Part shown: positions 51,774 through 53,830 of the stretch, piece after piece | How positions within the stretch are numbered: position 1 is the first letter of the stretch | Layout: each line of letters opens with the position of its first letter | From: an uncultured Rhodocyclaceae bacterium | GTDB lineage: Bacteria; Pseudomonadota; Gammaproteobacteria; Burkholderiales; Rhodocyclaceae | Length of the DNA stretch: 64,000 nucleotides | Direction of reading: 5' to 3' | Assembly (NCBI GenBank): GCA_907163075.1 | Contig: CAJQTY010000003.1 | Location: forward strand, 300,637 to 364,636 | Notes under the pieces: generated by a model | The model's input: only the letters and a program-made list of their open reading frames with translations | What the model was told of the DNA's origin: nothing | Database searches by the model: none | Position numbers and translations under genes: made by a program

Positions 51774-51799
51774 AAAAAAGGCACCGCCGAAGCGATGCC
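51774..51799 (-). terminator. Rho-independent terminator of the enolase gene
   Basis: On the minus strand, ggcatcgc-ttcg-gcggtgcc (an 8-bp stem with a stable UUCG tetraloop) is followed immediately by tttttt. It starts about 26 bp after the enolase stop codon and separates enolase from the macroglobulin gene. Confidence 0.88.
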
Positions 51800-51824
51800 T
51801 TCCGGTGATGCTTGACGTGCCGTA

Positions 51825-53285
51825 TCAGTAACCGGCGCCCTTGATCGACTTGAGGCCCTTGTAGATGCCCTTGTCAGCGAGTTGCTCTTCGATGCGGATC
51901 AACTGGTTGTACTTACAGATGCGATCGGTGCGCGACAGCGAACCGGTCTTGATCTGGCCGGCGCCGGTACCAACGGCGAGGTCAGCGATGAAGGAGTCTT
52001 CCGTCTCACCCGAGCGGTGCGACGAGATCACGCCATAGCCGGCCTTCTGTGCCATCCGGATGGCATCGAGCGTCTCGGTCACGGTACCGATCTGGTTGAC
52101 CTTGATCAGGATGGCATTGCAGGCGCCCATGTCGATGCCCTTCCTCAGGCGCACCGGGTTGGTCACGAAGAAATCGTCGCCGACGATCTGAACCTTCTCG
52201 CCCAGCGCCTTGGTGAATTTAACGTAGCCGTCCCAGTCGCTCTGGTCGAGACCGTCCTCGATCGAGACGATGGGGTACTTGTCGCACCAGTCGGAATACT
52301 TGGCGATCATTTCGTCGGCGGTGAACAACTTGTCCGGATTGGATTTCCAGAACTTGTAGCCCTTGCGGCCGCCTTCGTCGAACAGCTCGGAGGAAGCGCA
52401 ATCGAGGGCGATGCCGATCTGCTTGCCCGGCTTGTAACCGGCGGCCTCGATCGCCTGCATGACGACGTCAAGCGCTTCATCGTTCGACATGTCCGGTGCA
52501 AAACCGCCTTCGTCACCCACCGCCGTAACCTTCCCGGCCTTTTTGAGGATGCTCTTCAGGGCGTGGAAGATTTCGGTGATCCAGCGCAGGCCTTCGGAGA
52601 AGTTCTTGGCGCCGACCGGCATGATCATGAACTCCTGGAAGTCGATCATGTTGTCTGCATGCTTGCCGCCGTTGATGATATTGGCCATCGGCGTCGGAAG
52701 GACGAATTCCTTGTTCTTGTGGATCTTGCCGATGTACTTCCACAGCGGCATCTTGCTGACGTTGGCGCCGGACAGGGTAATCGCCATCGACGCGCCGAGT
52801 AACGCGTTGGCGCCGAGCTTGGACTTGTTCGGCGTACCATCGAGCGCGATCATGGCGTCGTCCAACTCACGCTGGTTGAGCGGGTTCTTGCCCTTGAGCA
52901 GTTTGGCGATCGGGCCGTTGACGGCTTCCACCGCTTTGAGCACGCCTTTGCCGAGGTAAACCTTCTTGTTGCCGTCGCGCAGTTCGCAGGCTTCGAACTC
53001 GCCGGTCGATGCACCGGACGGAACGGCGGCGCGGGCCATGAAACCATTGTCGAGCGTGATGTCGACTTCAACGGTGGGATTGCCGCGCGAGTCGAGAATC
53101 TGGCGCCCGACAACCTTGGCGATTTTGACGAACGAAGCCGGCGCCTTCGTGGCGGGCGCTGCTGCGGTCTTGGCAGCAACAACCTTCTTCACTGCAGGCG
53201 CCTTGGCGGCGGGAGCAGCTTTGGTAGCGGGAGCAGCTTTCTTGGGGGTTGCAGCTTTATCGACTTTGGCCATTTTGGTTTCCAT
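51825..53285 (-). CDS. eno: Enolase with Lys/Ala/Pro-rich N-terminal extension
   Basis: The 486-residue product contains a full enolase from about residue 52 ([25 protein letters not shown]), with [68 protein letters not shown] and [18 protein letters not shown]. All catalytic and Mg-binding segments are present, so it should convert 2-phosphoglycerate to phosphoenolpyruvate. The preceding ~50 residues are a low-complexity chain of AAK, APA and TKA units, like histone H1-like or AlgP tails; normal bacterial enolases start at the equivalent of residue 50. The start is the ATG at 53285 or 53273; only the latter has a plausible ggaaa site. Confidence 0.95.
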
Positions 53286-53467
53286 TGCAGAAGTTGATCA
53301 AGAACACCGTGTTGTGAAGCAAACAAGGACCGAGTATATAACGAAATGCAATTCGATTTTCCAGGAGTAAGCGCAAGGAAATCGATTGTCGACCATTTGA
53401 CTACAAAATTGATGCCGCGCTTCTCCAGTTTCGCCCGCTTCGCCACACCCCGCCCGCAATCTTTATG

Positions 53468-53830
53468 TCATACACGGCCGGCGGAAGCATCTTCGTCATC
53501 GGGATTGAGCACGCCAAAACGTGCGGGATAACGGGCGTAAAAAATCCGGACTTTTTCCTGACCAACCAAATCAATCAAGCGCTCTATTTCTTCGTCATCG
53601 GCAATGAATTCGACCACGACGCCCGTGCTACCGGCCAGCTCGAAAAATCGATCCTCGTGCACGGCATGGTGCCGTCCGAAGCCTCCGATTTCGCGGAACG
53701 CGCTGCCGCCGCGCAGACCCGTCCTGTTGGCTTTTTCGAGCAACCATTCCCAGAGCAGAACCCCGTCGTGCCTCTGCTTTTCGCCGACATAAAACCGGAT
53801 CAACGCGCCGTCCATTTTCGCCTCCGACAT
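53468..53830 (-). CDS. DUF190 family protein
   Basis: A 120-residue protein: ALIRFYVGEKQRHDGVLLWEWLLEKANRTGLRGGSAFREIGGFGRH is the DUF190 signature, with the later LAGSTGVVVEFIADDEEIERLIDLV. The first Met or Met6 (MDGALIRFY) may be the start. It lies 16 bp downstream of crcB in the same direction, a frequent pairing in fluoride-resistance loci, where DUF190 is thought to assist or regulate the channel. Confidence 0.9.
   Translation of the reverse strand: MSEAKMDGALIRFYVGEKQRHDGVLLWEWLLEKANRTGLRGGSAFREIGGFGRHHAVHEDRFFELAGSTGVVVEFIADDEEIERLIDLVGQEKVRIFYARYPARFGVLNPDDEDASAGRV

What the first reader, a model, noticed from the sequence alone, without database searches (positions are those of the whole stretch)
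53120..53285. Enolase carrying a histone-like Lys/Ala/Pro N-terminal tail
About 50 residues of AAK/APA/TKA repeats precede an otherwise complete enolase. Bacterial enolases normally begin at the equivalent of residue 50. A basic intrinsically disordered tail could tether the enzyme to nucleic acid, polyphosphate or the membrane, or reflect fusion with an AlgP/histone H1-like sequence. Enolase is an RNA-degradosome component in proteobacteria, which makes an RNA-binding tail attractive.
Basis: partly seen in the sequence, partly recalled or inferred. Interest (0 to 1): 0.75.

Follow-up and report, generated by a model that had tools for sequence, protein, structure and literature searches.

The report
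Borrowed second enolase with disordered tail
Two related groups of bacteria, one of them known from phosphorus-removing wastewater treatment, carry a second copy of a core sugar-breakdown enzyme apparently acquired from a distant phylum, and it has grown a floppy, fast-changing, lysine-rich front tail whose job is unknown but testable.

Summary
The tail is real. Window 51825-53285(-) encodes a complete enolase preceded by 49 Lys/Ala/Pro residues; the likely start is 53273, not 53285. No ATG/GTG/TTG lies at the tail/core junction. It is not this genome's ordinary enolase: a tail-less copy, 56% identical, lies elsewhere. The tailed copy (eno2) groups with Fibrobacterota enolases and, in a 249-genome family sample, occurs in 2 of 68 genera, inferred to be Propionivibrio and Accumulibacter. 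It has a conserved upstream promoter-like block and the highest codon adaptation of 44 window ORFs. Its closest Fibrobacterota relative has almost no extension, so the tail probably grew by in-frame repeat expansion; no AlgP/H1-like donor was found. Tails are hypervariable. In Propionivibrio they are cationic K/A/P/V (net +3 to +27); in Accumulibacter they are near-neutral K/E polyampholytes. Their basic first 12 residues are not special: untailed Fibrobacterota enolases share them. AlphaFold leaves the tail unstructured. A weak electrostatic tether is my functional guess, but near-neutral drift is just as likely. The neighbouring crcB (fluoride channel) looks syntenic rather than co-regulated.

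The parts
51825..53273 (-). eno2: second, apparently horizontally acquired enolase, 482 aa from the most likely start
   Evidence: Pfam Enolase_N and Enolase_C over cut-off; active-site columns invariant in A1; 56% identical to the canonical copy
53127..53273 (-). Lys/Ala/Pro-rich disordered N-terminal tail, 49 residues
   Evidence: translation; composition control; pLDDT about 30 over residues 1-40, under 50 to residue 46
53281..53283 (-). GGA, Shine-Dalgarno-like, ahead of the second ATG
   Evidence: a GGA begins 9-14 nt before the start in 38 of 38 tailed genes counted
53333..53338 (-). -10-like element TATACT (eno2's own promoter, inferred)
   Evidence: upstream alignment: TATANT at this place in 16 of 18 own-genus loci, TACAAT and TATGAT in the other two (no shuffled control); the generic sigma-70 scan found no site in this region
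51776..51803 (-). terminator-like hairpin (12 pairs, tetraloop, T-run) just after the eno2 stop
   Evidence: such sites are also expected by chance (2 found in the region, shuffles mean 3.1)
53468..53830 (-). DUF190 gene upstream, syntenic neighbour
   Evidence: PF02641, 67.4 bits
53847..54233 (-). crcB (fluoride channel family), syntenic neighbour and the only crcB found in the genome
   Evidence: PF02537, 98.6 bits; own-genome search

Best explanation
Supported by the calls: eno2 has an intact enolase active site, groups with Fibrobacterota enolases and is kept beside a native enolase in the Propionivibrio/Accumulibacter lineage, which points to horizontal acquisition. It appears to be its own transcription unit with well-adapted codons, so it is probably well expressed. 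An N-terminus that in Fibrobacterota reads about MAK..VKI was extended in frame by short repeats into a disordered tail, which is translated whenever the enzyme is made from the annotated start. Inferred: in Propionivibrio the tail works as a flexible cationic appendage making weak, multivalent contacts, several tails per enolase oligomer, with cellular polyanions (nucleoid DNA, RNA or polyphosphate). This would bias where the enzyme sits without touching catalysis. In Accumulibacter an acidic second half offsets the basic start and would keep such binding weak or absent.
For: Second canonical enolase in the same genome. eno2 in 20 of 28 own-genus genomes, in 13 of 249 family genomes from 2 of 68 genera, in 23 of 28 genomes of the second genus (three incomplete), and in 1 of 369 class genomes, the window's own. 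The tree puts the tailed enzymes with Fibrobacterota (99/95 for the fork with 7 of 9 Fibrobacterota rows; 94/94, not starred, for the fork with L045). L045 has only a 10-residue lead and Fibrobacter-like neighbours by my reading. 18 of 18 own-genus tails hold 0 or 1 acidic residue at 25% Lys overall in spite of fast turnover: tail aa identity is below core identity in 10 of 10 pairs, tail gaps occur in 7 of 10 and core gaps in none. No Phe, Trp, Tyr or Cys in the tails outside the last 3 positions, which were not counted. Tail unstructured. Upstream blocks conserved. CAI 0.797 for the core against 0.761 for the canonical copy. A fragment of the AlgP C-terminal domain and KPAA-repeat peptides bind DNA, and AlgP localises to polyP granules (PMC9239181, passages read).
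Against: No binding, localisation, proteomic or expression data were available. Net charge is not conserved between the genera. Fast tail divergence and length change between enzymes with cores 99.5% identical (49 and 38 residues, L004/L007) suit weak constraint. The strongly cationic tails are in Propionivibrio, not in the genus known for polyphosphate storage. L045 is unresolved among tailed rows in the tree and Propionivibrio is not one clade there, so loss of a tail in L045 or another direction of transfer is not excluded.
Confidence: 0.36

Rival explanations
1. The tail is a tolerated, nearly neutral low-complexity extension: in-frame repeat slippage at an exposed N-terminus, with composition kept by repeat dynamics and by avoidance of hydrophobic residues, and no dedicated partner.
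For: Tail aa identity below core identity in 10 of 10 pairs, with in-frame tail indels in 7 of 10; a tandem KAN run in L038; composition differs by genus; the basic first 12 residues are shared with untailed Fibrobacterota enolases. Odds raised from 0.35 to 0.37 because of that control.
Against: 0 or 1 acidic residue in 18 of 18 own-genus tails; synonymous diversity among repeat units of the window tail argues against very recent slippage alone; an extension of at least 21 residues in 38 of 38 tails counted.
Confidence: 0.37
2. The tail aids translation initiation, folding or solubility of a highly expressed foreign enzyme (an expression tag in effect).
For: Whole eno2 ORF has the highest codon adaptation of 44 window ORFs; tail codons are less adapted than the core (0.668 against 0.797).
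Against: Dozens of extra residues should not be needed for this; Fibrobacterota homologues do without.
Confidence: 0.12
3. eno2 is a fluoride-tolerance enolase working with the adjacent CrcB channel, as in the Enterobacter cloacae crcB-eno-ppaC operon.
For: crcB and DUF190 lie directly upstream on the same strand; crcB is adjacent in 13 of 20 own-genus genomes with eno2 (G008 by coordinates), and one more (L012) is cut at a contig end just beyond DUF190; a fluoride-induced enolase in a crcB operon is published (PMC5533749, passages read).
Against: 194-nt gap holding a conserved -10-like block in own-genus loci with and without crcB nearby; no fluoride riboswitch in the region, in 11 related loci at gathering score or in the genome (which scored 150 of 833 candidates); crcB in 5 of 8 own-genus genomes without eno2 and missing from 3 of 20 with it; no match to the window's CrcB in 30 Accumulibacter-genus locus rows, most with only 1.5-kb flanks.
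Confidence: 0.08
4. The tail arose by fusion with an AlgP/PhaF/histone-H1-like gene and keeps its nucleoid-binding role.
For: Similar K/A/P repeat composition to AlgP/PhaF C-terminal domains (PMC9239181, passages).
Against: Two exact patterns written for the tail's own repeats match nowhere else in the genome (a diverged donor would be missed); gradation from the 10-residue lead of L045 to K/E and longer K/A/P tails, 37 of 38 starting MA.
Confidence: 0.05

Closest known systems
Bacterial enolase (Eno; Pfam PF03952 + PF00113)
   Same: Both domains complete; active-site residues invariant in alignment A1; sequence match to solved enolases (best 1iyx, E 3.4e-159)
   Different: A 49-residue disordered N-terminal tail; a second, Fibrobacterota-type copy in a betaproteobacterium
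AlgP / PhaF C-terminal KPAA-repeat domains of Pseudomonas
   Same: Lys/Ala/Pro-rich, predicted disordered, cationic
   Different: Here N-terminal, short, on a metabolic enzyme; no homology shown; the sister genus has K/E tails instead
crcB-eno fluoride-resistance operon of Enterobacter cloacae FRM
   Same: An extra enolase gene near crcB
   Different: No riboswitch found, inferred own promoter, DUF190 between, and no crcB found beside eno2 in Accumulibacter-genus loci

Membership tests
Enolase (phosphopyruvate hydratase) | Both Pfam domains over curated cut-offs | tested here: met
   PF03952 180 bits (cut-off 35), PF00113 424.6 bits (cut-off 21.5)
Enolase (phosphopyruvate hydratase) | Catalytic and Mg-binding residues present (which residues these are is recalled from E. 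coli enolase) | tested here: met
   H205, E214, E255, D291, E339, D366, K391, H419/R420/S421 and K442 invariant in the 21-sequence alignment A1
Enolase (phosphopyruvate hydratase) | Enolase activity | not testable with these tools
   needs purified protein
AlgP/PhaF/H1-like tail proteins | Long C-terminal KPAA repeat after a helical domain | tested here: not met
   tail is N-terminal, 49 residues, on an enolase
AlgP/PhaF/H1-like tail proteins | DNA or polyP-granule binding | not testable with these tools
   no binding data
crcB-linked fluoride-resistance enolase | Fluoride riboswitch RF01734 control | tested here: not met
   none in the region, in 11 related loci at gathering score or in the genome (150 of 833 candidates scored)
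crcB-linked fluoride-resistance enolase | Co-transcription with crcB | tested here: inconclusive
   same strand, but 194-nt gap with a conserved upstream block
RNA-degradosome enolase | RNase E scaffold binding | not tested
   no search for the scaffold was made

The most novel reading that the evidence does not exclude
The tails are a fast-evolving localisation module on a borrowed, dominant enolase. Starting from the basic N-terminus inherited from Fibrobacterota, tail charge tunes how strongly the enzyme docks on polyanionic bodies: fully cationic in Propionivibrio, and balanced by acidic residues in polyphosphate-hoarding Accumulibacter so that the enzyme is not trapped on its polyphosphate. 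Glycolytic flux in glycogen/polyphosphate cycling would then be spatially controlled by tail charge.
Probability: 0.09. Interest if true: 0.75.

Novelty: new variant of a known kind. Interest (0 to 1): 0.48.

Why it matters
Enolase is a core, slowly evolving enzyme. An apparently horizontally acquired second copy that looks at least as well expressed as the native one, with a hypervariable charged tail, is a natural experiment on what disordered tails do to metabolic enzymes. One of the two genera, Accumulibacter, is the model polyphosphate accumulator of phosphorus-removing wastewater treatment. It also matters for annotation: the passages that I saw of transcript and proteome studies name 'eno' or enolase in these bacteria without saying which of the two copies is meant.

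Tried and rejected
AlgP/H1 fusion: disfavoured by unique repeat patterns and graded tails. The patterns are exact, so a diverged donor could be missed, and the reversed control matched 5 times against 1 for the pattern itself.

Fluoride operon: attractive at first (crcB and DUF190 directly upstream, published crcB-eno operon) but not supported by riboswitch, spacing, promoter or co-occurrence data.

Downstream start (tail never made): no ATG/GTG/TTG at the junction in the window. After the chosen ATG, no further GTG or TTG lies before the core in 5 of 18 own-genus and 18 of 20 Accumulibacter-genus tails counted; the other 13 and 2 have one or more, so a shorter tail is possible there. The script takes the last ATG, so internal ATGs are excluded by construction; L015 and L129, which have one, were dropped.

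Basic N-terminal cap as a sign of selection on the tail: dropped after a control. It is present in 11 of 11 Fibrobacterota rows without a real tail, absent in 10 of 10 canonical rows (-1 each) and mixed in 13 other rows.

Plasmid origin: 293 PLSDB records hold enolases, all under 60% identity, so no plasmid carrier was found.

Literature: searches listed no paper that I could see describing a tailed or second enolase in these genera. I read passages of five papers and only listings of the rest; supplements could not be opened. Any 'not in print' rests on these searches alone.

Rows dropped: tail statistics used 18 of 20 own-genus tails. Dropped were L015, where the script took an internal ATG (true tail about 105 residues), and the gene of G008, split over two contigs. 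They used 20 of 23 tails of the second genus; dropped were L129 (internal ATG), L134 (gene cut at a contig end) and the partial gene of G306 (not fetched). The 20 include L098, whose match to the core stops at residue 346-347 while the frame runs on (595 residues), so that gene is probably frameshifted; it is in the tree as well. Upstream alignments used 18 own-genus and 15 Accumulibacter-genus loci. Protein alignment A1 used 21 chosen sequences and the tree 70. The family and class searches scored at most 6 and 4 candidates per genome at strict thresholds.

Full report
What is there. The minus-strand ORF 51825-53285 is open for 486 codons and carries a complete enolase (Enolase_N from residue 55, Enolase_C to residue 482), preceded by a Lys/Ala/Pro-rich stretch. 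The best 49-residue window of the tail has 37 K+A+P. Of 237 frames of 100 codons or more in the window, only four have any 49-residue stretch with at least 9 K; the other three reach 16, 16 and 11. Two exact degenerate patterns written for its repeats match only this place in the 5.2-Mb genome. The reversed control matched 0 times for the first and 5 times for the second, so only the first carries weight.

Where translation starts. A GGA begins 9-14 nt before the chosen ATG in 38 of 38 genes counted, and the ATG is followed by GC in 37 of 38 (L012 is the exception). In the window this is the second ATG, 53273. Between there and the core the only start-like codon is a GTG at 53192; the next ATG (53039) is inside the core.

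It is a second enolase. The same genome has a tail-less copy, 56% identical over 424 aligned columns. Its neighbours read as CTP synthase, KdsA and an FtsB-like protein (my reading; not run against Pfam). Among 59 genomes (own included) the tailed type appears in 20 of 28 own-genus genomes and in none of the 31 others. Among 249 family genomes it is in 13, from 2 of 68 genera. All 28 held genomes of the second genus give 23, three of them incomplete (G294, G304, G306). In 369 class genomes only the window's own matched. I infer that the genera are Propionivibrio and Accumulibacter because loci from named records carry the same tails (for instance L014 and L037 of P. dicarboxylicus, L016 and L039 of P. 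soli, L128 and L041 of Ca. Accumulibacter regalis). One own-genus locus, L044, comes from a record titled Accumulibacter sp.

Origin. In a 70-row tree the tailed enzymes share a fork with 7 of 9 Fibrobacterota rows (99/95) and a closer one with L045 from a Fibrobacterota MAG (94/94, below the tree tool's own star), far from the canonical betaproteobacterial copies. L045's neighbours look Fibrobacter-like by my reading of the ORFs (family names recalled). Its protein begins MAKVAAPKSVKISKVIGR, and several other Fibrobacterota begin about MAKIKNVVGR. The simplest course is transfer of an untailed enolase followed by growth of sequence between the start and VKI. But L045 is unresolved among the tailed rows and Propionivibrio is not a single clade in the tree, so tail loss in L045 or another direction of transfer is not excluded.

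The tails. Own-genus tails (18 of 20 counted) run 26-89 residues, 37.5% Ala, 25% Lys, 13% Val, 11% Pro, 0.7% Asp+Glu, net +3 to +27, with 0 or 1 acidic residue each. L015, dropped from the count, has about 105 residues. Tails of the second genus (20 of 23 counted) run 21-43 residues, 23% Ala, 20% Lys, 16% Glu, net -2 to +2. In all 38 counted the first 12 residues are net positive (+2 to +5) and the rest is positive in the first genus and negative in the second. The control shows that the basic start is inherited: 11 of 11 Fibrobacterota rows have +2 to +4 there, against -1 in 10 of 10 canonical rows. In 10 of 10 pairs compared the tail is less conserved in amino acids than the core; 7 of 10 have tail gaps and none has core gaps. 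At DNA level two pairs do not show the faster tail (L013/L017 tail 91.0% against core 89.1%; L131/L119 both 95.2%). AlphaFold, from a shallow alignment of 21 sequences, gives pLDDT about 30 for residues 1-40 and over 70 for 342 of 482 residues (mean 77, pTM 0.79).

Expression unit. Upstream of eno2 a -10-like TATANT is conserved at the same place in 16 of 18 aligned own-genus loci, with TACAAT and TATGAT in the other two; 15 of 15 Accumulibacter-genus loci have TATNAT in a block with an upstream CATTG (no shuffled control). The generic sigma-70 scan found nothing here, and the terminator-like hairpin just after the stop is of a kind also expected by chance. With codon weights from five genes of a ribosomal-protein cluster (778 codons; genes named by my reading around the L2 match), the eno2 core scores 0.797, the canonical enolase 0.761 and the median of 44 window ORFs (chosen greedily, some may be spurious) 0.65; the whole eno2 ORF ranks first. 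In two own-genus MAGs (G010, G022; 92% and 96% complete) only eno2 was found, which hints, within the limits of MAGs, that it can serve alone.

Fluoride. The only crcB found in the genome and a DUF190 gene lie upstream on the same strand. Enterobacter cloacae has a fluoride-induced operon with an extra enolase and crcB (PMC5533749, passages). But no fluoride riboswitch was found (one search scored 150 of 833 candidates), the gap is 194 nt, the -10-like block is also present in own-genus loci without crcB nearby, and crcB and eno2 do not co-occur strictly (5 of 8 eno2-less own-genus genomes have crcB, 3 of 20 with eno2 lack it). I read the adjacency as synteny.

Function. A fragment of the AlgP C-terminal domain and KPAA peptides bind DNA; AlgP localises to polyphosphate granules and needs its C-terminus for their spacing; [quoted passage not shown] This makes a polyanion tether plausible for the Propionivibrio tail. 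The near-neutral tails of Accumulibacter argue against strong, conserved polyanion binding, and the shared basic start is ancestral. I give a weak electrostatic tether 0.36 and a nearly neutral extension 0.37, changed from 0.40 and 0.35 after the control. No call tested function.

Noticed in passing
G010 and G022 (own genus); G304 (Accumulibacter genus): Only the tailed enolase was found in these MAGs (92%, 96% and 72% complete), so eno2 may sometimes be the sole enolase.
   Followed up: no
L041:1559-8386: In Ca. Accumulibacter regalis eno2 lies between a divergent pyruvate-kinase-like gene and a block read as MFS transporter, GAPDH and ArsR-like regulator (labels from my reading). At least one of these four matched in 24 of 30 Accumulibacter-genus locus rows, which include duplicates of the same genomes.
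   Followed up: partly
window 51776-51803: The hairpin after eno2 overlaps the GTG start (51784) of the listed 1948-aa alpha-2-macroglobulin ORF, so that gene's true start is probably further downstream.
   Followed up: no
L038:3899-3943: Candidatus Accumulibacter aalborgensis has a tandem MAKANKANKANKANK start to its tail, a likely recent repeat expansion.
   Followed up: no
window 53468-53830: The DUF190 gene between crcB and eno2 is 59-73% identical to the window's copy in own-genus loci while crcB is 78-89%, so it evolves faster.
   Followed up: no
L098:4049-4927 (and L135): Candidatus Accumulibacter adjunctus eno2 loses its match to the core at residue 346-347 although the frame stays open: a frameshift or an assembly error.
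   Followed up: no
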